A stretch of DNA of 39,580 nucleotides. It comes from a virus. The notes below the pieces were generated by a model, which was not told where the DNA came from, searched no databases, and worked only from the letters and a program-made list of their open reading frames with translations. Of this stretch, positions 28,876-38,752 are shown piece after piece (positions within the stretch are counted from its first letter, which is position 1; the number at the start of each line of letters is the position of its first letter). The stretch lies in IMG/VR virus record IMGVR_UViG_3300032265_001293, positions 1 to 39,580 of that record; one strand, given 5' to 3'. The position numbers and the translations under genes are program-made.

Positions 28876-29163
28876 ATGGAATATGATGCTATATTCAAGC
28901 TGATCGCTGATGTCGGATTTCCTATCGCAGCTGCACTCGTGGCTGGTGTCTTCGTATATTTCGTAATAAATTATATCCTTGAAAGTGTCGTGAAGGCAAT
29001 TAAGGGAATGCAAGGTATCATTATGGGTCTTGATAATCGTGTAAAAACGATGAATCATGATATCATAAGAGTAGATGCGGTGGTTAGCTCAGCATTGGGA
29101 TTGAGACCAGATTTAGAACGAATTGCAAGGGCTGATGGAAAGAACGATGCCCGAAAGGACTGA
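28876..29163 (+). CDS. BhlA/holin-like membrane protein, copy 1
   Basis: A 95-aa protein with one N-terminal membrane segment (GFPIAAALVAGVFVYFVINY) and a C-terminal cytoplasmic coiled segment (LDNRVKTMNHDIIRVDAVV) followed by a charged tail. The organisation matches BhlA/UviB-like holin or bacteriocin-associated proteins. It shares the order GFPI, membrane helix, LDNR/LIDR and NDLIR-type motifs with the next gene, so the two are probably ancient tandem duplicates. Confidence 0.55.
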   Translation: MEYDAIFKLIADVGFPIAAALVAGVFVYFVINYILESVVKAIKGMQGIIMGLDNRVKTMNHDIIRVDAVVSSALGLRPDLERIARADGKNDARKD

Positions 29164-29166
29164 GTC

Positions 29167-29436
29167 ATGGTTTCTATAGACCAAGTTTCGGAATTGATTA
29201 AGCAGTATGGTTTTCCAATTGTTTCGGCAGTTGGAATGGGGTATTTCGTATTTTTCATTTATAAATTTGTTACCAATAAATTGATGCCCCTTATTGGTGA
29301 GACGAACGTAATATTGATTGCATTGATTGATCGTATCAGAATGTTAGACAATGACCTCATAAGATTACAACAAAAAGTGAGCGTTGTGTTACAAATGAAA
29401 GAGGATCATAAAAATGCAAATAAGCCTGAGACTTGA
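29167..29436 (+). CDS. BhlA/holin-like membrane protein, copy 2
   Basis: An 89-aa protein, MVSIDQVSELIKQYGFPIVS, with one membrane segment (SAVGMGYFVFFIYKFV) and a coiled segment LIDRIRMLDNDLIRLQQKV. It aligns by eye with the preceding gene over GFPI, the helix and D-R-x-x-x-x-x-x-D-x-I-R. It starts 3 bases after that gene and is followed by a terminator-like hairpin, so it closes the holin-like transcription unit. Confidence 0.55.
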   Translation: MVSIDQVSELIKQYGFPIVSAVGMGYFVFFIYKFVTNKLMPLIGETNVILIALIDRIRMLDNDLIRLQQKVSVVLQMKEDHKNANKPET

Positions 29437-29456: not shown

Positions 29457-29484
29457 TTGACTTTTCTCTTTCATCCGATAAAAA
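29457..29484 (+). promoter_or_regulatory. Candidate promoter for the curli block
   Basis: TTGACT at 29457-29462 matches a -35 at five of six positions. TAAAAA at 29479-29484, after a 16-base spacer, is a weak -10. The string TTGACTTTTC resembles TTGCTTTTC in the stronger promoters at 16698 and 36882. It follows a terminator-like hairpin. Confidence 0.4.
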
Positions 29485-29495
29485 GGAGAAGAAAG

Positions 29496-29945
29496 ATGAA
29501 GAGCATGAGGTTCCTGTGCCTGCTCCTGCTGATCAGCAGCAATAGTTTAGCCACAGATTTAACTTATAGTTTTAAAGATCCTTCTTTTAGTGGGGTCAAT
29601 ACTTCCGCACATTGGTTGACAATCGACAATCAAGAACACACCAGATCAAAAGAAATAGCTGATGCTATTCAAGCAGCATTGCAAGCTAAGGCTGCAGCTG
29701 CACAAAATACTATTCTAGCCAAGTTTATTAATAACCTAGAATCAAGAATCTACTCACAATTAGCTGCTCAGCTAACTCAAAACCTATTTGGTGAGAATCC
29801 TCAACCAAAGGGTTCTTTTACTATTGACGGTAATACCGTAACTTATAATAAAGATACTGCAACTAACACACTAACAATGACTATAACCGATGGGACAGGT
29901 AATACGACTACAATCGCTATTCCTCTTGATGGGTTTAAATTCTAA
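29496..29945 (+). CDS. csgF: CsgF, curli assembly/nucleation component
   Basis: A 149-aa protein with a Sec signal peptide (MKSMRFLCLLLLISSNSLA) followed by TDLTYSFKDPSFSG, matching the mature CsgF start (GTMTFQFRNPNFGG), the part that inserts into the CsgG pore. The middle has a long helix (IADAIQAALQAKAAAAQNTI). The C-terminus has NTLTMTITDGTGNTTTIAIP, corresponding to the E. coli LQLNVTDRKTGQTSTIQV region. The ATG at 29496 follows AAGGAG. It is directly coupled to csgG through TAATG. It probably caps the CsgG channel and anchors secreted curlin. Confidence 0.9.
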   Translation: MKSMRFLCLLLLISSNSLATDLTYSFKDPSFSGVNTSAHWLTIDNQEHTRSKEIADAIQAALQAKAAAAQNTILAKFINNLESRIYSQLAAQLTQNLFGENPQPKGSFTIDGNTVTYNKDTATNTLTMTITDGTGNTTTIAIPLDGFKF

Positions 29946-30760
29946 TGAAAAAACTAATACTTACAATCTTGTTATTACTTTTGACAGGCTGTACTATCAT
30001 TGACAGTGCTAATAAATCAACTTTAGAAAAAATTGGTGAGAAAAGAACAGAACCAGTAGTTGAACGTACACTATTGAAGAAGTTAAAGACTGTGAAGGCA
30101 CCAGAAAGACAAGTGATTGTTGCCGTATATGATTTTCCTGATTTAACTGGGCAAAGAAAAGATAAAGACACAACCTCATCTTTTTCTAACTCAGTAACTC
30201 AGGGTGGAGCAGCATTGTTGATTGATGCGTTAAAATCAGCAGGTGATGGCTCATGGTTCAAAGTTGTTGAGAGAACAAGAATTGACGATTTAACGAAAGA
30301 GCGTCAATTGATTCGTTCAACAAGAGAAGAATATCAGGGAAGTGGACAAAATAAGTTAGAGCCACTTCTATTTGCTGGACTATTAATCCAAGGTGGCATA
30401 GTGGGTTACGACACTAATATCATTAGTGGTGGTTCAGGAGCTCGTTATCTAGGAATTGGGATGGATAGGCAGTATCGTCGTGATCAGGTCACTATTGCTC
30501 TTAGGGCAGTATCAACTGCATCAAGTGAAGTATTGATGAATGTACAAGTGACTAAGACAATATTGTCATCTAGCATGGATAATAATGTATTTAAATTTAT
30601 TGATATGGGAACAAGAGCACTTGAAGTTGAAACTGGTGTGGCAGAAAATGAGGCGAACACAATGGCAGTTAAAATAGCCATTGAGGCAGCTGTGGTAGCA
30701 ATGATAGAGCAGGGTATTCAAAAAGGGTACTGGAATTATAAACAAGAGGAAATCAAATAA
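29945..30760 (+). CDS. csgG: CsgG, outer-membrane curli secretion channel
   Basis: A 271-aa lipoprotein. MKKLILTILLLLLTGCT has the lipobox L-L-T-G-C. VIVAVYDFPDLTGQ, AALLIDAL, WFKVVERTRIDDLTKERQLI, GGIVGYDTNIISGGSGARYLG, MDRQYRRDQVTIALRAV, VTKTILSSSMDNNVFKFID and the C-terminal QGIQKGYWNYK match E. coli CsgG in order along its full length. It should form a nonameric outer-membrane pore. No CsgE adaptor, CsgC or CsgD is visible in the window. Confidence 0.95.
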   Translation: MKKLILTILLLLLTGCTIIDSANKSTLEKIGEKRTEPVVERTLLKKLKTVKAPERQVIVAVYDFPDLTGQRKDKDTTSSFSNSVTQGGAALLIDALKSAGDGSWFKVVERTRIDDLTKERQLIRSTREEYQGSGQNKLEPLLFAGLLIQGGIVGYDTNIISGGSGARYLGIGMDRQYRRDQVTIALRAVSTASSEVLMNVQVTKTILSSSMDNNVFKFIDMGTRALEVETGVAENEANTMAVKIAIEAAVVAMIEQGIQKGYWNYKQEEIK

Positions 30761-30761
30761 A

Positions 30762-31457
30762 ATGAAAAATTTAATCAAAGCATTATTATGTTTGGTTGCA
30801 TTTACATCATTATCAGCGCACGCACAATCAGCATCAACCAACTCAATTTATCTTGAGCAAATCGGCGATTCGAGCACCATCACTCTTTTACAAAAGGGTT
30901 CTGGTAACCAGATGGGGACTACAGTGTCACCATTTTACATGAATGGTAATCAGCAAATACTAAACTTCACACAAGAAGGTAACAATAACTCCTTACAGGG
31001 GCAAATTTTAAGTTCAAGTGTGAATTCTAATATTCTTAATAGTGGTAACTCCAACTTGATTAAACTAGACATGGGTGGCTCGGCATCTGTATCTGGTACA
31101 TCTTTTAATATGAATTTAGTTGGTACATCTAACTCATTTGAATTAGACCAGGGTACGGTTGGTGCATCGACAAGTGCAACATTAACATATAATCTAACTG
31201 GTGACTGGAATACATTTAAGAACCAAATTGATACAAATAATGTTGTGAATACATTTAATTTAACTGGCGACCACAATGAAATTGGCGTTTCACAGAATGG
31301 ACATGATGGTAAAAATATTGACTTCACATTAGTTGGAAGTGGCAACTCTTTTAACATTCAACAGAAGAGTATTTTAAATGTTGATTCACTTAAAATTGAT
31401 TCAATTTCTAACAACGGTACTTTTACTATTAGCCAGTGCCCACCTTTGGGCTGCTAG
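30762..31457 (+). CDS. Curlin-like secreted amyloid protein (CsgA/CsgB type)
   Basis: A 231-aa protein with a Sec signal peptide (KNLIKALLCLVAFTSLSAHA). The mature part is rich in Asn, Gln, Gly, Ser and Thr with degenerate curlin repeats of the type N/S-x5-Q-x-G-x-x-N, for example IYLEQIGDSSTITLLQKGSGNQ shortened as LEQIGDSS and LLQKGSGN, LNFTQEGNNN and FNIQQK, and LVGTSNSF. This is the substrate expected for the CsgG/CsgF pore just upstream. It ends CPPLGC, two Cys unusual for curlins. Its last 80 bases also encode the signal peptide of the next gene. Confidence 0.82.
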   Translation: MKNLIKALLCLVAFTSLSAHAQSASTNSIYLEQIGDSSTITLLQKGSGNQMGTTVSPFYMNGNQQILNFTQEGNNNSLQGQILSSSVNSNILNSGNSNLIKLDMGGSASVSGTSFNMNLVGTSNSFELDQGTVGASTSATLTYNLTGDWNTFKNQIDTNNVVNTFNLTGDHNEIGVSQNGHDGKNIDFTLVGSGNSFNIQQKSILNVDSLKIDSISNNGTFTISQCPPLGC

Positions 31458-32490
31458 TAGCATAGGTTCTATAACTGCTCTAAATGGGTCTAGTGAACTA
31501 TATCGCCAAAAAGCGAAAATAGACACTAGACCCACTTTAGGTGTGGAGTCCCTCGATGATGTTAGAACAGGAAATGGGCGTCTAGAGATAACCTTTCTAG
31601 ATGATAGCAAAGTGCGCATGACCGAACAGTCAAAGTTGCTTATAGATGAATTTGTATACGATCCTAATCCATCCAAGTCTAAAATGTCTATGCGTTTTGC
31701 GCAGGGAACTGCGCGTTTTGTTACTGGGCAATTGGGCAAGGTTGACAAGCAGAATATTAAACTCAGCACTCCTACAGCAACTATTGCTGTTCGTGGTACA
31801 GATTTTACAACTACCGTAGATGAGTTCGGGAGAAGTCTTGTAATACTTCTCCCAGAAGCAGATGGTAAGGTTGGAGAGATTACGGTTTCAAATCTGGCTG
31901 GCTTTGTTATTATGAACCAAGCTTTTCAAGCAACAATGGTGGCATCGGCAGAAAAGATGCCGACTAATCCTAGTGTTATACAAGGATTAGATCTCAATTT
32001 AATTGATAACATGTTAATCGTAACTCCCCCAAAAGAAGTAGCCAAACCAGTAGAAAGAACTGATGGTAAGAGAGATATGTCAACTTCATTTTTCGGTGAA
32101 GATGCTCTCAAGAAAGACTATCTCAGTAATGCTGATTTCAATAGAGACGAACTAAAGACGACTTCGACTATCGATTTTAATGCGATTAATAATACCTTCT
32201 TTGAAGACTTCTTTTATCTAAACCAAGATACAAACCAGACGGGAGGTATGACGAAGGGTGGAGTGACAATCCAAGGAACTTCTTTTGGGATGGATAAGAC
32301 TACGCAAATAAATACCGTGGTAGAAGATCCGTTTTTGGTTATATTTCGTCAATTGTCTCAAACTTTTGAGTTAATCACGGAAAAAACTAGCACGGCAACA
32401 ATTAATCTAACTCAGAATAATAAGTCTTATACAATAATTTTAAACAACGGAACTGGCGGTACAGTAATCAATATCAATCAAGGAAATTGA
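31378..32490 (+). CDS. Secreted FecR-domain protein
   Basis: A 370-aa protein with a strong Sec signal peptide (LIQFLTTVLLLLASAHLWA) whose coding sequence lies wholly inside the end of the curlin gene in another frame. The mature N-terminus (SSIGSITALNGSSELYR, DDVRTGNGRLEITFLDDSKV, TATIAVRGTDFTT) is a FecR periplasmic domain; the G-T-A-R-F and I-A-V-R-G-T-D-F motifs are diagnostic. Residues 240-370 are Asn/Thr-rich and repetitive near the end (INLTQNNKSYTIILNNGTGG), reminiscent of the curlin. In bacteria FecR proteins often sit next to CHASE2 cyclases, as here. Confidence 0.85.
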   Translation: MLIHLKLIQFLTTVLLLLASAHLWAASSIGSITALNGSSELYRQKAKIDTRPTLGVESLDDVRTGNGRLEITFLDDSKVRMTEQSKLLIDEFVYDPNPSKSKMSMRFAQGTARFVTGQLGKVDKQNIKLSTPTATIAVRGTDFTTTVDEFGRSLVILLPEADGKVGEITVSNLAGFVIMNQAFQATMVASAEKMPTNPSVIQGLDLNLIDNMLIVTPPKEVAKPVERTDGKRDMSTSFFGEDALKKDYLSNADFNRDELKTTSTIDFNAINNTFFEDFFYLNQDTNQTGGMTKGGVTIQGTSFGMDKTTQINTVVEDPFLVIFRQLSQTFELITEKTSTATINLTQNNKSYTIILNNGTGGTVININQGN

Positions 32491-32492
32491 TC

Positions 32493-34529
32493 ATGAAGAA
32501 ATTATTATCTCCGTGGCTTGCATTGATCACGCTATTTGTGATGATTGGTGTTCGTTATGAAAATCCAACTTTCATCGAGAGCGTTAGATTGCGCTACTTC
32601 GATACTTTAATCACATCTAAGAAACCAACAGAGAACAATGTTTATACCGTAAACATTGATGAGGATTCTTTAAACAAATATGGTCAATGGCCATTCCCCA
32701 GATCAGAGTATTCATACATCATTCAAGAACTCTACAAGAGAAATGCTGGTCTGGTTATTCTAGACGTTTTGATGCCAGAACGCGATAGGTTTGGTGAAGA
32801 TGCTCTATTAGCCAAAACAATAACAAAATACCCAGTCATATTGGCTAATATTCCAGCAGAAAAAACAAAGAACAATCCTAAAGTTCCTGGTGCTGTAATT
32901 ATTGGTTCAGAGTTTGAAGATAAAATCGTCAAGTATCCTGGATTAATCGCGAACGTACCAGCACTAGAAGAAAATGCCATTGGCGTTGGTAGTGTTAATA
33001 CTATGCCTGAGATTGATGGTGTTAATCGTCGTGCCCCTTTAGTATCTACAGTAGAGGGTAAGATATATCCATCACTAGCCATGGAAGTGTTACGCGTGGC
33101 TGCTGGTGATAACACAGTACAAATTAAACTAAATGAGAATGGCGTAGAGAAAATGCGCATTCCTAGTTTTGGTCCCATAACAACAGACTCATTAGGTCGC
33201 GTCTGGATTGATTGGTCTCAAAAGGATAAGCAAGTATCATTAGCATATCTTCCTGAAGATTTTAATGGTGCAATGGTTATTGTTGGACCAACTGCTGCTG
33301 GTATTGCTAATCCACTATCAACTCCCGTTGGAGCATCATACCCACAAGACATACAAGCATCATTAATTTATACAATGATGAATGGTGTTGTAATTTCAAG
33401 ACCAGACTACGCTGACAGTTTAGAGTTGCTTTCTATTCTAATAGCAGGTATACTATTATTAATTCTTACGAGGTGGACATATGTTGGACTTGCGTCAATT
33501 CCTATTATCATTTTTAGTGCTGCGTATGGTAGCCACTGGGCTTTTGTCAATCACCTTTGGTTATTTGACATTACTGCCTTCATCGGAGCAACCGTGTTGG
33601 TTGCGCTCCATGCATACGGAATCAAGTTCGTCTCAGAGTTCCTGCAAAAGCAGCAAATCAAAAAACAGTTTGGAACATATCTATCCCCCGCGATGGTAGA
33701 AAAATTACAAAAGAATCCAGAGTTATTAACTCTTGGTGGTGAAGAGCGTGAACTTTCTATTATGTTCACTGATGTTCGCGGCTTCACAAGTATCTCTGAA
33801 CACTATGGAAAAGATGTGCAGGGATTAACTAAAATTATGAATCGCTACATGACTGCAATGACTGCAAAAATCATTGAGAATGAGGGTACTCTTGACAAGT
33901 ACATCGGCGATGCTCAGATGGCGTTCTGGAATGCACCACTTGATGACGCTAATCACGCAAAAAACGCAGTGAAAACTGCCCTTTTAATGTTAAAAGACTT
34001 GGAGAAGTTTAATGAAGAAATATCTAAAGAATCTGTTCCTCCATTCGGATTGGGAATCGGCATTAACACTGGTCGTGTTGTCGTTGGTAATATGGGCAGC
34101 GTTCAAAGGTTTGACTACACCTGTCTCGGAGACGCTGTCAACCTGGCAAGTCGTCTCGAAGGGCAATCAAAGCCATATGGTGTTAAACTTATCCTCGGAC
34201 CAATTACAGCAGAGCAAATAGCAGACGAATATCAGCTGATTGAACTCGATTTGATCGCAGTAAAGGGTAAAACGGAGCCAGTTAAGATCTATACAGTCGC
34301 CCCTGCCGATGATGTCATGGCAGGTAACCAGCATGAGAAGTTCCTAGATGCTTATAGAAAAGGTCAGTGGAAAGCTGCTAAGTTTTACATTAATGGTATG
34401 GGACAATGGGGTGGTCTCAAGACGGGCTGGAATGGCGAAATGAATAAATACTATGACGCAATGTTAGAGAGAATGGAAGGCGAAGTGCCAGAAGGCTGGG
34501 ATGGAGTTTTCAGAGCAACAAGCAAATAA
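32493..34529 (+). CDS. CHASE2-domain class III adenylate cyclase
   Basis: A 678-aa membrane protein. After an N-terminal membrane helix comes a periplasmic CHASE2 sensor (VNIDEDSLNKYGQWPFPRSE, GLVILDVLMPERDRFG, DGVNRRAPLV). Three membrane helices follow at about 305-375, then a class III cyclase: MFTDVRGFTSISE (metal Asp), LDKYIGDAQMAFWN (second metal Asp and purine-binding Lys), FDYTCLGDAVNLASRLEG (Asp/Thr region and transition-state Arg). All catalytic residues for making cAMP from ATP are present. The ATG at 32493 follows AGGAAA; it lies 2 bases after the FecR stop. A phage-borne adenylate cyclase is unusual. Confidence 0.9.
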   Translation: MKKLLSPWLALITLFVMIGVRYENPTFIESVRLRYFDTLITSKKPTENNVYTVNIDEDSLNKYGQWPFPRSEYSYIIQELYKRNAGLVILDVLMPERDRFGEDALLAKTITKYPVILANIPAEKTKNNPKVPGAVIIGSEFEDKIVKYPGLIANVPALEENAIGVGSVNTMPEIDGVNRRAPLVSTVEGKIYPSLAMEVLRVAAGDNTVQIKLNENGVEKMRIPSFGPITTDSLGRVWIDWSQKDKQVSLAYLPEDFNGAMVIVGPTAAGIANPLSTPVGASYPQDIQASLIYTMMNGVVISRPDYADSLELLSILIAGILLLILTRWTYVGLASIPIIIFSAAYGSHWAFVNHLWLFDITAFIGATVLVALHAYGIKFVSEFLQKQQIKKQFGTYLSPAMVEKLQKNPELLTLGGEERELSIMFTDVRGFTSISEHYGKDVQGLTKIMNRYMTAMTAKIIENEGTLDKYIGDAQMAFWNAPLDDANHAKNAVKTALLMLKDLEKFNEEISKESVPPFGLGIGINTGRVVVGNMGSVQRFDYTCLGDAVNLASRLEGQSKPYGVKLILGPITAEQIADEYQLIELDLIAVKGKTEPVKIYTVAPADDVMAGNQHEKFLDAYRKGQWKAAKFYINGMGQWGGLKTGWNGEMNKYYDAMLERMEGEVPEGWDGVFRATSK

Positions 34530-34537
34530 GGACTGAT

Positions 34538-35032
34538 ATGCTATTCTGGCTACTTAAATTTTTACCTGCTATGTTGATTCATGGGTTCATGGCTGCATCT
34601 TTGCTTGCATTCTTGATCTCATTCATTCCACTTGTCCCATATAGAGTATTCTTAAAGTGGGGTGGGATCGCAGCCATTGCTTTAGGTTTATTCCTAGAGG
34701 GCTGTTTATTGACCCAACAAGCATGGGAAGCCCAAGTAGAAAATTTACAAAAACAAGTTGCTATTTCAGAAGAAAAAGCAAAGGTAATCAATACAGAGAT
34801 TGTTGAGAAGGTTGTGACGGAACAAAAAATCGTCAAAGAAAAAGGCGATGCGATTATTAAGTACATTGATCGCGAAGTGACTAAGATTGATAGCACTTGC
34901 GTTATTCCAGAAATAGTAATCAAGGTTCATAATGCTGCCGCTCTCAATACCCCAATAGAAGAAGAACAACCATTAACACCAAGCACTGTTGTAGATACTA
35001 GTGCTCATAACGCAGCGGCAATGCCGCAATGA
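34538..35032 (+). CDS. Inner-membrane spanin (Rz-like) candidate
   Basis: A 164-aa protein with two N-terminal hydrophobic segments (LLKFLPAMLIHGFMAASLLA and a second near residues 40-58) and a periplasmic coiled coil (VENLQKQVAISEEKAKVINT, VEKVVTEQKIVKEKG). A short Pro/Thr/Ala-rich tail follows. This is the usual layout of an i-spanin, which with an outer-membrane lipoprotein disrupts the outer membrane at lysis. AAGGA lies 6 bases upstream. The partner is probably the lipoprotein at 36083-36346. Spanin identity is from architecture only. Confidence 0.6.
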   Translation: MLFWLLKFLPAMLIHGFMAASLLAFLISFIPLVPYRVFLKWGGIAAIALGLFLEGCLLTQQAWEAQVENLQKQVAISEEKAKVINTEIVEKVVTEQKIVKEKGDAIIKYIDREVTKIDSTCVIPEIVIKVHNAAALNTPIEEEQPLTPSTVVDTSAHNAAAMPQ

Positions 35033-35561: not shown

Positions 35562-36083
35562 ATGAAAACATTTAAATCATTTTTAGAAGAAGCTGCCAAC
35601 GCTGCACAACAAGCAGCCATTGCTATTGCTATGAAAAAAGCTGGAAAGAAACCAAAGAATGAAGAGGTTTCTCCAATGATTAAACCGCCAAACAGGCGAT
35701 TTGACAACAAGAGTGATGCCTTCGCTCATGTTAAGAAACATGGTGGTAAAGTTTATAAAGGAACTTATATAGATCCTAACAATGGAACAAAACATATATC
35801 TTTTCATGTTAAAGAAGAAGTAATCAACGAACGTGGCGAAGATTCAAAAGGATATAAGCGTTCAACGGAATCTGGCGCAGGTCTAACTCGCAAAGGTGCG
35901 AAGGCTATGGGAATCAAAACCGCAGTCACAACCCCACCAAGCAAACTAGATCCAAACGGAAAAGCAGCAAAGCGTCGTAAGTCTTTTTGTGCACGCATGA
36001 GTGGAATGAGAGGACCAATGAAAGATGATAAGGGTCGCCCAACTCGTAAAGCAATGTCATTGAGAAGATGGAATTGTCATTAA
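35562..36083 (+). CDS. Multi-module virion-type protein with MKTFKSFLEE leader
   Basis: A 173-aa protein. The start at 35562 is preferred over the ATG at 35559 because AAGGA is then 6 bases upstream; it gives MKTFKSFLEEAANAAQQAA, the clearest match in the window to the T4 internal-protein leader. A small beta module (DAFAHVKKHGGKVYKGTYID), a linker VKEEVINERG and a C-terminal module with KAAKRRKSFCARMSGMRGPM and SLRRWNC follow; the last is shared by many marine phage structural proteins. Probably packaged in the head. Overlap with the next gene is TAATG. Confidence 0.65.
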   Translation: MKTFKSFLEEAANAAQQAAIAIAMKKAGKKPKNEEVSPMIKPPNRRFDNKSDAFAHVKKHGGKVYKGTYIDPNNGTKHISFHVKEEVINERGEDSKGYKRSTESGAGLTRKGAKAMGIKTAVTTPPSKLDPNGKAAKRRKSFCARMSGMRGPMKDDKGRPTRKAMSLRRWNCH

Positions 36084-36346
36084 TGAGAAAATTAATCCCA
36101 CTATTACTAATTTTATCAGGTTGTGCTACTGTTCCTGTTGAAAGACATTTCCCAGAAGCACCACCAGAGTTAATGGTGAAGTGTGGCAATTTACAAACAA
36201 TAGACAAACAACAGGTTGTCTTCAGTGAGTTTTTAAAAACTGTTACTGCTAATTATACTCAGTACTATAGTTGTGTTAAATTATTAGACGGATGGCAGGA
36301 GTGGTATAAAAACCAGAAACAGAATTTCGACTCAGTGGGTAAATAA
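36083..36346 (+). CDS. Outer-membrane spanin (Rz1-like lipoprotein) candidate
   Basis: An 87-aa lipoprotein: MRKLIPLLLILSGCATVPVE has the lipobox I-L-S-G-C, followed by Pro-rich EAPPELMVKC, a pattern typical of Rz1-like o-spanins, then a helical C-terminal region with a second Cys. The ATG at 36083 is chosen because the in-frame upstream ATG would spoil the signal sequence and because TAATG coupling is present. It probably pairs with the i-spanin at 34538-35032; two other genes lie between them, which is less usual than adjacent or nested spanin pairs. Confidence 0.65.
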   Translation: MRKLIPLLLILSGCATVPVERHFPEAPPELMVKCGNLQTIDKQQVVFSEFLKTVTANYTQYYSCVKLLDGWQEWYKNQKQNFDSVGK

Positions 36347-36944: not shown

Positions 36945-38012
36945 ATGTCCGTTTACATTGATCGTAAATATCTGCTATTGTCTTCATCAAGACTCGAAAG
37001 ATTCGCACAAAAGAAAGATGATCTGTTTAATTTCAGATGTCCTTTCTGTGGCGATTCCAAAAAGAATAAACTAAAAGCCAGAGGTTATGTTTTCAGGAAA
37101 AACAATGACTACTATTACACCTGCCATAACTGTCATACAAGTACAACCTTTTCAAAATTCTTAAAGCATATAGACGGTGAATCTCACCGCCAATACGTTG
37201 TTGAACGCTATACTGCAGGAGACAACAGCCACTCAAATTATCAAAAGCCAAACTTTGATCTGAAAGGACCAAAGCCTGGACAAGTGTTTAGTGAAAAAAT
37301 TGATGCATTACACGAACAGTCAAATATTAATATTAAATCTGTTAAAGCAGATGGTCTATACTGCCTAAGTAATTTGTCAGAGGAACATCCAGCTCGCGTT
37401 TATATTAAAGAAAGAAGTATTCCAGAAAAGTTTTTGTCTGAAATTTATTATACCAATAAATACAAAGAATTCCTCGATAATTGTTTTCCTCATCACGGTA
37501 ATGAGAATGTACCAGACGATGAGCGTATAGTATTGTTCTATACAAATGAAAAGGGAGATATAACTAATGTCACTGGAAGAGCTCTGGGTCAAAATAGGAT
37601 TCGATATTGCACAGTTAAAGTCGGAGAGGAAAAGAAAATCTTCGGACTACACAGATTACGAATTGATTCAAAGGTTTATGTTGTCGAAGGTCAATTTGAT
37701 TCTTTCTTTATTCCTAATTGCATTGCCAGTGGTGATAGCAATTTGGGTGGTATTATTGAACATCTAAAAGCTGATGACATAACATTAGTTTATGATAATG
37801 AACCGAGAAATCCAGAAATAGTAAAGCAGGTAGAGCGTTCTATCAATAAAGGATATTCTGTTTGTTTGTTTCCTGATAGTATTCCTGGAAAAGATATTAA
37901 TGAGATGATTGCGTTGGGTATAAGTGCTGAAGAGATTAAAATTATTATTGATGATAATACGTTTAGTGGGCTTACGGCAAAGTTGAAGTTTATAGAGTGG
38001 AGAAAATGCTAA
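36945..38012 (+). CDS. 61: DNA primase, T4 gp61/DnaG-like
   Basis: A 355-aa primase that makes RNA primers with the gp41-type helicase. An N-terminal zinc ribbon is formed by RCPFCGDS (Cys32, Cys35) and YTCHNCH (Cys60, Cys63). The TOPRIM core shows VYVVEGQFDSFFIPN (catalytic Glu), LVYDNEPRNPE (Asp) and PGKDINEM. Length and order match gp61. It has its own promoter and heads a nucleotide/replication operon. Its stop overlaps the next gene by 7 bases. Confidence 0.93.
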   Translation: MSVYIDRKYLLLSSSRLERFAQKKDDLFNFRCPFCGDSKKNKLKARGYVFRKNNDYYYTCHNCHTSTTFSKFLKHIDGESHRQYVVERYTAGDNSHSNYQKPNFDLKGPKPGQVFSEKIDALHEQSNINIKSVKADGLYCLSNLSEEHPARVYIKERSIPEKFLSEIYYTNKYKEFLDNCFPHHGNENVPDDERIVLFYTNEKGDITNVTGRALGQNRIRYCTVKVGEEKKIFGLHRLRIDSKVYVVEGQFDSFFIPNCIASGDSNLGGIIEHLKADDITLVYDNEPRNPEIVKQVERSINKGYSVCLFPDSIPGKDINEMIALGISAEEIKIIIDDNTFSGLTAKLKFIEWRKC

Positions 38013-38752
38013 AGACATACAAATCAATATTCATCTCTGATGTCCACTTAGGCACTAAGGGATGTAAGGCTGATATCCTTTGTAAATTTCTAAAAGAGCA
38101 CACATCTGAAAATCTATTTCTAGTTGGTGACATCATTGATGGCTGGCGACTCGAGCGCAAATTCTATTGGCCACAGAGTCATAGCAATGTTATTCGTCGT
38201 ATTCTTACTGCAGCAAAACGTGGTACTAATGTCACATACATTGTCGGTAACCATGATGAAGTCCTAAGAAAGATTTTACCTTTTGGTGTTTCTTTTGGTG
38301 AGATTGAATTGAAGAATCATCATAGATATAATGCTATTAATGGTAAACAATATTTGATTCTACATGGTGATTTGTTTGATACTGCCATAAGAAATAAGTT
38401 AAAATTCTTATATCACTTAGGTGATTATATTTACGATCTACTGTTAGATTTAAATCATGTAGTCAACTGGGTCAGAAACAAATTTGGATTCAAGTATTGG
38501 AGTTTAAGTGCCTATCTAAAAGGTAAGACAAAAGAAGCTGTTGCTTACATGTCTGACTTCGAAACTTTAATAACGGAATATTGTAAAAAGAAAAAGGCTG
38601 ATGGTGTTATATGTGGTCATATTCATCACGCTGATATTAAAGATATTAATGGCATCACTTATATGAATGATGGTGATTGGGTAGAAAGTTGTACTGCTCT
38701 TGTTGAAAATTATGATGGTACATGGGAAATTTTGAAAATGGAAATAACATGA
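38006..38752 (+). CDS. Calcineurin-like metallophosphoesterase, LpxH-like
   Basis: A 248-aa protein. SIFISDVHLGTKGCKA, FLVGDIIDGWRLERKFYWPQ, TYIVGNHDE, LILHGDLFD and VICGHIHHADI are the five metal-binding blocks of the family. The D-G-W-R-L and W-P-Q-S-H variants are those of UDP-2,3-diacylglucosamine pyrophosphatase-like enzymes of lipid A synthesis. The ATG at 38006 with GGAG 3 bases upstream is preferred to the GTG at 37997. It lies between primase and thyX, so action on a nucleotide substrate should also be considered. Confidence 0.8.
   Translation: MLKTYKSIFISDVHLGTKGCKADILCKFLKEHTSENLFLVGDIIDGWRLERKFYWPQSHSNVIRRILTAAKRGTNVTYIVGNHDEVLRKILPFGVSFGEIELKNHHRYNAINGKQYLILHGDLFDTAIRNKLKFLYHLGDYIYDLLLDLNHVVNWVRNKFGFKYWSLSAYLKGKTKEAVAYMSDFETLITEYCKKKKADGVICGHIHHADIKDINGITYMNDGDWVESCTALVENYDGTWEILKMEIT

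What the first reader, a model, noticed from the sequence alone, without database searches (positions are those of the whole stretch)
31378..34529. FecR-domain protein plus CHASE2 adenylate cyclase carried by a phage
The cyclase keeps both metal Asp residues, the purine Lys and the transition-state Arg, so it should make cAMP. FecR plus CHASE2 cyclase is a known bacterial gene pair, here fused in order to the curli genes. This suggests the phage senses the periplasm or envelope and raises cAMP during infection, perhaps to control curli, host metabolism or lysis timing. I know of few phage class III cyclases.
Basis: partly seen in the sequence, partly recalled or inferred. Interest (0 to 1): 0.82.

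Follow-up and report, generated by a model that had tools for sequence, protein, structure and literature searches.

The report
Phage curli cassette with cAMP-making sensor
This virus of bacteria carries a complete, real gene set for making sticky curli-type amyloid fibres together with a membrane sensor-enzyme that very probably makes the messenger cAMP; the set is already published from ocean viruses and turns out to be widespread and tightly conserved, with some unreported parts.

Summary
ORF 31378-32490 is a secreted FecR-domain protein, and ORF 32487-34529 is a CHASE2 plus class III nucleotidyl cyclase with all six catalytic residues. It is not a chimera: at least 586 IMG/VR stretches encode relatives, and the cassette occurs in two cultured phages (Pelagibacter HTVC008M, Methylophilales Melnitz). 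It was described in 2022 as a pelagiphage type VIII secretion module with FecR and adenylate cyclase (PMC9599517), so the finding is a new member of a known kind.

What this work adds:
- The cassette is a strict 7-8 gene module; 91 of 92 loci with full flanks hold all parts.
- Two small membrane proteins (28876-29436) belong to it.
- Both metal Asp, the purine Lys and the transition-state Arg are invariant in 240/240 phage cyclases; 88 share an unusual Asp/Ser active-site variant.
- Phage FecR proteins end in a conserved curlin-like motif (169/170).
- Ten sampled bacterial csgF loci lack FecR and CHASE2-cyclase neighbours.
- No cNMP-binding protein was found in 24 phage records, so any effector is probably the host's.

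Best model, inferred: FecR links curli export to CHASE2, which sets cAMP output. Curli, metabolism or lysis as the target is untested.

The parts
28876..29163 (+). TM1: 95-aa protein with one membrane helix and a probable coiled coil, ending ..ADGKNDARKD; part of the module, function unknown (phrog_18771; weak holin/YvrJ resemblance)
   Evidence: two-copy family in 91 of 92 loci with full flanks; most conserved protein of the module, 59% mean pairwise identity
29167..29436 (+). TM2: 89-aa paralogue of TM1
   Evidence: same family as TM1
29457..29945 (+). CsgF-like curli pore partner (likely true start at the internal ATG near 29496, before the signal peptide)
   Evidence: PF10614 E=1e-21; phrog_35372
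29945..30760 (+). CsgG-like outer-membrane curli secretion channel, lipoprotein signal LTGC
   Evidence: PF03783 E=3e-52; phrog_20175
30762..31457 (+). curlin-like fibre subunit
   Evidence: Curlin_rpt E=0.0025 alone; family profile hits solved curli subunits 8c50 E=5e-16 and CsgA 8enq E=4e-5
31378..32490 (+). FecR-domain protein: signal helix, FecR domain, disordered linker, C-terminal all-beta domain
   Evidence: PF04773; AlphaFold2 mean pLDDT 82; FecR part matches PupR cell-surface-signalling domain Z 16
32245..32487 (+). C-terminal beta domain of FecR protein ending in a curlin-like strand-turn-strand with invariant Gln368
   Evidence: 169/170 phage FecR proteins end hyd-x-hyd-x-Q against 29 expected from shuffles; tail profile hits curlins among non-FecR proteins; predicted alone pLDDT 90
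32487..34529 (+). CHASE2-class III nucleotidyl (adenylyl) cyclase (start probably the ATG at 32493)
32529..33455 (+). CHASE2 periplasmic sensor domain region (residues 15-323)
   Evidence: PF05226 E=3e-39
33750..34295 (+). class III cyclase catalytic domain (residues 422-603; D429, K471, D475, T545, N552, R556)
   Evidence: PF00211 E=3e-19; aligned to 1wc0, 3r5g, 6fht

Best explanation
This is a phage-borne curli (type VIII secretion) cassette with its own envelope-to-cytoplasm signalling arm. Curlin-like subunits leave through CsgG/CsgF. The FecR protein, secreted to the periplasm, carries a FecR domain (a periplasmic protein-contact domain like that of PupR) and a curlin-like C-terminal end. 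It most likely contacts the curli pore or fibre with the tail and the CHASE2 domain of the cyclase with the FecR domain, so that the state of fibre export or of the envelope sets cyclase output. The cyclase then makes cAMP in the infected cell, read by a host receptor because none was found in the phages. Shown here: the gene content, strict linkage, conserved catalytic residues, the domain anatomy and the curlin-like tail motif at sequence level. Inferred: periplasmic placement, physical contact between parts, cAMP as the product, direction of control, and the downstream effect.
For: Strict linkage: of 92 phage loci with full flanks FecR and curlin are in 92, CsgG, CsgF and the TM pair in 91; a search seeded with CsgG instead of the cyclase found the cyclase in 16/16 loci with at least 6 kb downstream. 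D429, K471, D475 and R556 are unchanged in 240/240 phage cyclases, matching solved adenylyl cyclases. FecR tail: 169/170 end in the motif; hhalign of tail against phage curlin 30.8% probability, E=5e-4, against 0.6% or less for other families, shuffled columns and FecR linker pieces; among 12,474 ORFs the non-FecR hits below E=1 are 10 curlins plus three short ORFs at contig ends. FecR-domain fold matches PupR signalling domain Z 16. Precedents: S. meliloti CHASE2 cyclases raise cAMP on a protein signal sensed through the outer-membrane barrel NsrA (PMC13001267); a CHASE2-deleted CyaD1 makes cAMP constitutively (PMC5498481); FecR beside CHASE2 in Campylobacterota cAMP clusters and a Burkholderia biofilm operon (PMC9239204, PMC5192318). 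Expression of the viral curli and FecR genes is reported from metatranscriptomes (PMC9599517).
Against: No biochemistry exists. The tail's predicted fold found no curli match in the PDB, so curlin likeness rests on sequence alone and hhalign's probability is modest. No cNMP-binding protein in 24 phage records, and whether the hosts hold a cAMP receptor was not shown. No cell clumping was seen with Melnitz in culture (PMC9004378). 88 of 240 phage cyclases, Melnitz included, have Asn552 replaced by Ser, which may weaken or change catalysis.
Confidence: 0.5

Rival explanations
1. Lysis timing: the CsgG/CsgF pore, the small membrane pair and cAMP together act as a lysis clock or pinholin-like device rather than making fibres, as proposed for the pore of Melnitz.
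For: Authors' proposal for Melnitz (PMC9004378); the TM pair has weak holin matches (phrog_4898, E=1e-4 to 0.01); spanin-like genes lie near the cassette in this window (34538-35032 and 36068-36346).
Against: Every full locus keeps curlin subunits, usually two, which a pore-only role does not need; no recurring spanin or lysin family sits beside the TM pair across 151 loci; the holin matches are marginal.
Confidence: 0.15
2. The FecR-cyclase pair senses an outside cue (iron compound, nutrient, surface contact) unrelated to curli export, and merely shares the operon.
For: Known FecR domains serve iron-signal systems; bacterial CHASE2 cyclases occur without curli.
Against: The phage cyclase was not found without the curli genes in 92 loci with full flanks, bar one locus lacking CsgG/CsgF, and the FecR tail is curlin-like.
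Confidence: 0.18
3. The product is not cAMP but another cyclic nucleotide (cGMP, cCMP, cUMP), for instance to trip or jam a Pycsar-type defence.
For: PADLOC PycC models match the cyclase domain (E=2e-27); one phage lineage has an Asp/Ser active-site variant.
Against: PycC is itself a class III cyclase, so the match may only reflect the shared domain; Lys471 with Thr/Ser545 is the usual adenylyl cyclase pair (own knowledge); bacterial CHASE2 relatives have the same residues; no Pycsar effector was recognised in the module.
Confidence: 0.12
4. The genes are bacterial contamination or an assembly chimera.
For: Genes of bacterial type inside a phage contig.
Against: The same module stands in two cultured phage genomes and hundreds of independent contigs.
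Confidence: 0.01

Closest known systems
Pelagiphage T8SS cassette with FecR, adenylate cyclase and 'histidine kinase' (PMC9599517, 2022); HTVC008M and Melnitz genomes
   Same: Same gene order CsgF-CsgG-curlin-FecR-(curlin)-cyclase; 39% cyclase identity over 99% (Melnitz) or 88% (HTVC008M) of its length; annotated already in GenBank
   Different: Window phage belongs to a different cyclase group, lacks the second curlin gene, and no histidine kinase was recognised before CsgF: two small one-helix proteins stand there
Bacterial FecR plus CHASE2 cyclase/kinase operons (Campylobacterota; S. meliloti CyaD1/D2/K; Burkholderia BiofilmReg)
   Same: Periplasmic FecR-domain protein beside a CHASE2 signalling protein (in S. 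meliloti the FecR protein is a target of the cAMP pathway)
   Different: No curli genes reported there; sampled bacterial FecR partners lack the curlin-like tail
Bacterial curli (csg) operons
   Same: CsgF, CsgG, curlin subunits
   Different: CsgE and CsgD are reported missing from the phage set (PMC9599517); ten bacterial csgF loci had no FecR or CHASE2 cyclase nearby
Class IIIb adenylyl cyclase CyaC (1wc0/1wc1)
   Same: Catalytic residues D, D, K, T, N, R
   Different: CHASE2 membrane sensor attached

Membership tests
Class III nucleotidyl cyclase | two metal Asp, purine Lys, transition-state Asn/Arg in a Guanylate_cyc domain | tested here: met
   PF00211; residues aligned with 1wc0 and 3r5g; conserved across homologues
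Class III nucleotidyl cyclase | makes cAMP (or cGMP) from ATP (GTP) | not testable with these tools
   needs an enzyme assay
CHASE2 sensor protein | CHASE2 domain flanked by membrane helices before a cytoplasmic output domain | tested here: met
   PF05226 E=3e-39 residues 15-323, cyclase 422-603; helices read from the sequence, not run through a topology predictor
FecR family | FecR domain (PF04773) with periplasmic location | tested here: met
   E=2e-12; N-terminal signal helix and PupR-like fold Z 16; location inferred
Curli / type VIII secretion | CsgG channel, CsgF and curlin-repeat subunit in one operon | tested here: met
Curli / type VIII secretion | CsgE and CsgC accessory proteins | tested here: inconclusive
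   no match among the ten ORFs scanned; no dedicated search was made
Curlin subunit (for the FecR tail) | curlin repeat sequence and beta-solenoid fold | tested here: inconclusive
   sequence motif met; fold search gave no curli match
Pycsar defence (PycC) | pyrimidine cyclase paired with a cNMP-binding effector | tested here: inconclusive
   PADLOC PycC models match the cyclase domain, but no cNMP-binding domain was found in 24 related phage records, several of them fragments; substrate untested
Holin (for TM1/TM2) | recognised holin family membership and lysis role | tested here: inconclusive
   weak phrog_4898 matches only

The most novel reading that the evidence does not exclude
The phage FecR protein is a hybrid of a FecR signalling domain and a curlin-like end that plugs into the curli export machine, making the cassette an amyloid-secretion checkpoint: the virus measures fibre export at the outer membrane and reports it to the cytoplasm as cAMP, with two obligatory small membrane proteins as further parts. 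No such coupling of functional amyloid export to cyclic-nucleotide signalling was found in the papers searched.
Probability: 0.25. Interest if true: 0.78.

Novelty: new member of a known kind. Interest (0 to 1): 0.48.

Why it matters
Viruses that add a whole new surface fibre system plus a second-messenger enzyme to their hosts may change how infected cells stick, signal and die. The cassette is published, but the papers on pelagimyophages and Melnitz do not mention the cyclase in their text, and its logic is untested. The strict module, the curlin-like FecR tail, the obligatory membrane pair and the two catalytic variants give concrete handles for testing whether phages use cAMP and why they carry amyloid genes.

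Tried and rejected
Single-protein scan of bacterial genomes gave no relative; the alignment scan gave five loci: three carry module genes (L084-L086, probably phage contigs binned into MAGs), one is Thiomicrospira at 29% identity, one is a partial match. A phage-encoded cAMP receptor (PF00027) was not found in 24 records. Late T4-type promoters: the ATAAATA motif is rarer in the window than in shuffles (9 against 18), so nothing was concluded. No Rfam element besides two tRNAs. T7-like phages among 49 relatives: no PolA found, so the published podophage version could not be compared, nor the identity of its 'histidine kinase'. Fold search with the isolated FecR tail: only weak matches, and CsgA or other curli chains were not listed. 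Literature search for a SAR11 cAMP receptor gave nothing useful.

Full report
Observation. The two ORFs are real and at the stated coordinates. Profile searches give FecR (PF04773, E=2e-12) for 31378-32490, and CHASE2 (E=3e-39) followed by Guanylate_cyc (E=3e-19) for 32487-34529; CsgF (E=1e-21), CsgG (E=3e-52) and a curlin-like gene stand directly upstream. The window is a 39.6-kb virus record with T4-type replication genes: DNA polymerase, UvsX, helicase, primase, and thyX. The curlin-like gene, only marginal by Pfam, is confirmed by a family profile that finds the solved curli subunits 8c50 and CsgA.

Not a chimera and not rare. Two cultured phages carry the same cassette, with cyclase and FecR annotated in Melnitz and the cyclase in HTVC008M. 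The literature already describes it: Zaragoza-Solas 2020 (PMC7029224) reported the curli genes in pelagimyophages; Buchholz 2022 (PMC9004378) proposed a pore role in lysis; neither text mentions the cyclase. A 2022 mSystems paper (PMC9599517) describes the full set with FecR and adenylate cyclase, finds viral CsgG and FecR at 65 ocean stations, reports expression, and suggests an alphaproteobacterial origin.

Module anatomy. Unbiased clustering of ORFs around 84 loci recovered six sense-strand families in most loci: cyclase, curlin, FecR, CsgG, CsgF and a pair of small proteins with one membrane helix plus a probable coiled coil; the other frequent clusters look like antisense or internal frames of these genes. 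In 92 phage loci with full flanks FecR and curlin are present in 92, CsgG, CsgF and both small proteins in 91 (the 93rd locus in that table is the bacterial L087). A search seeded with CsgG instead of the cyclase agrees: cyclase in 16/16 loci with enough downstream sequence, at least one small protein in 60/60 with enough upstream sequence, two or more in 59. The small proteins (phrog_18771) have only weak holin-like matches, and the first of the pair is the most conserved protein of the module. PMC9599517 reports 'a histidine kinase, sometimes two' in the place before CsgF; this pair occupies that place here. Whether they are the same genes could not be checked.

Catalysis. Against solved class III adenylyl cyclases the window protein keeps D429, D475, K471, T545, N552 and R556. 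In one search, 241 sequences were aligned, 240 from phages and one bacterial (L087); D, K, D and R are invariant in all. Two positions define types: Thr-Asn or Ser-Asn (152 phage proteins, as in bacterial relatives) and Asp-Ser (88, Melnitz included). The Asp-Ser type is absent from 49 bacterial CHASE2 cyclases and from the 24 bacterial matches whose motif could be read (the two sets overlap). It changes once on the catalytic-domain tree but eight times on the CHASE2 tree, which suggests swapping of catalytic domains between phages. Phage cyclases form one clade (support 1.0) whose sister in this sample is alphaproteobacterial (support 0.85), in line with the published origin.

FecR protein. 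AlphaFold2 gives a signal helix, a confident FecR domain, a disordered linker (low confidence at 228-244 and 254-287) and a confident C-terminal beta domain. The FecR part matches the PupR cell-surface-signalling domain (Z 16) and, less strongly, a 'cell surface anchoring domain' 5ix9 (Z 7.2). The C-terminus carries a strand-turn-strand motif ending in an invariant Gln; 169/170 complete proteins have it against a shuffle mean of 29. Profile comparison links the tail to phage curlins and not to control sequences, and among 12,474 ORFs the non-FecR hits below E=1 are 10 curlins plus three short ORFs at contig ends that look like truncated FecR. The tail's fold found no curli match, so the likeness is by sequence only.

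Bacterial comparison. Ten bacterial csgF loci, most read over 18 kb, had no FecR or CHASE2 cyclase, and the FecR-domain ORFs found beside bacterial CHASE2 cyclases (seven loci) lacked the tail. This is a small sample and fits PMC9599517's statement that these genes are not part of bacterial T8SS operons. The combination is thus probably a phage invention built from two bacterial parts.

Mechanism. Committed model: curlin export through CsgG/CsgF is monitored by the FecR protein, which signals to CHASE2 and sets cAMP output, read by a host receptor since no cNMP-binding protein was found in 24 phage records. Precedents are the NsrA-CyaD1/D2/K system of S. meliloti and FecR-CHASE2 operons. Every contact in this chain is inferred. 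Rivals are lysis timing, an independent environmental sensor, and a non-cAMP product; none is excluded.

Verdict. Its unreported features (obligatory membrane pair, curlin-like FecR tail, Asp-Ser catalytic variant) keep it of moderate interest. 'Unreported' means not met in the open papers that could be searched here.

Noticed in passing
L002, L025, L029, L040, L046, L050, L056, L071: The cassette occurs on viral contigs of 236 to 344 kb, so jumbo-sized phages carry it; the papers found describe it from pelagiphages and Melnitz.
   Followed up: partly
L083:7664-8986: The second curlin protein of HTVC008M carries a PA14 domain (E=3e-6), so some fibres may bear a sugar-binding part.
   Followed up: no
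L032:14891-15730 and relatives (family mpe19): A calcineurin-like phosphoesterase with weak CpdA (cAMP phosphodiesterase) resemblance, far below cut-off, lies near the cassette in 14 loci; possible cAMP off-switch.
   Followed up: no
window 37997-38752: LpxH-like phosphoesterase (NF003743 E=1e-13, below cut-off); homologues sit close to the cyclase in about a dozen loci.
   Followed up: no
window 34538-35032 and 36068-36346: Possible inner and outer spanin genes just downstream of the cyclase; weak PHROG matches; homologues beside the small membrane pair in L025.
   Followed up: partly
L084, L085 (Rhodobacteraceae MAG), L086 (Pirellulales MAG): Contigs with cassette genes binned into bacterial MAGs; the Rhodobacteraceae MAG holds four CsgF matches. 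Such bins could mislead searches for a bacterial donor.
   Followed up: partly
L004:3469-3687 and 46 other loci: A conserved small ORF (73 aa in L004) on the same strand within 1.5 kb of the TM1/TM2 pair, between the two genes in L004.
   Followed up: no
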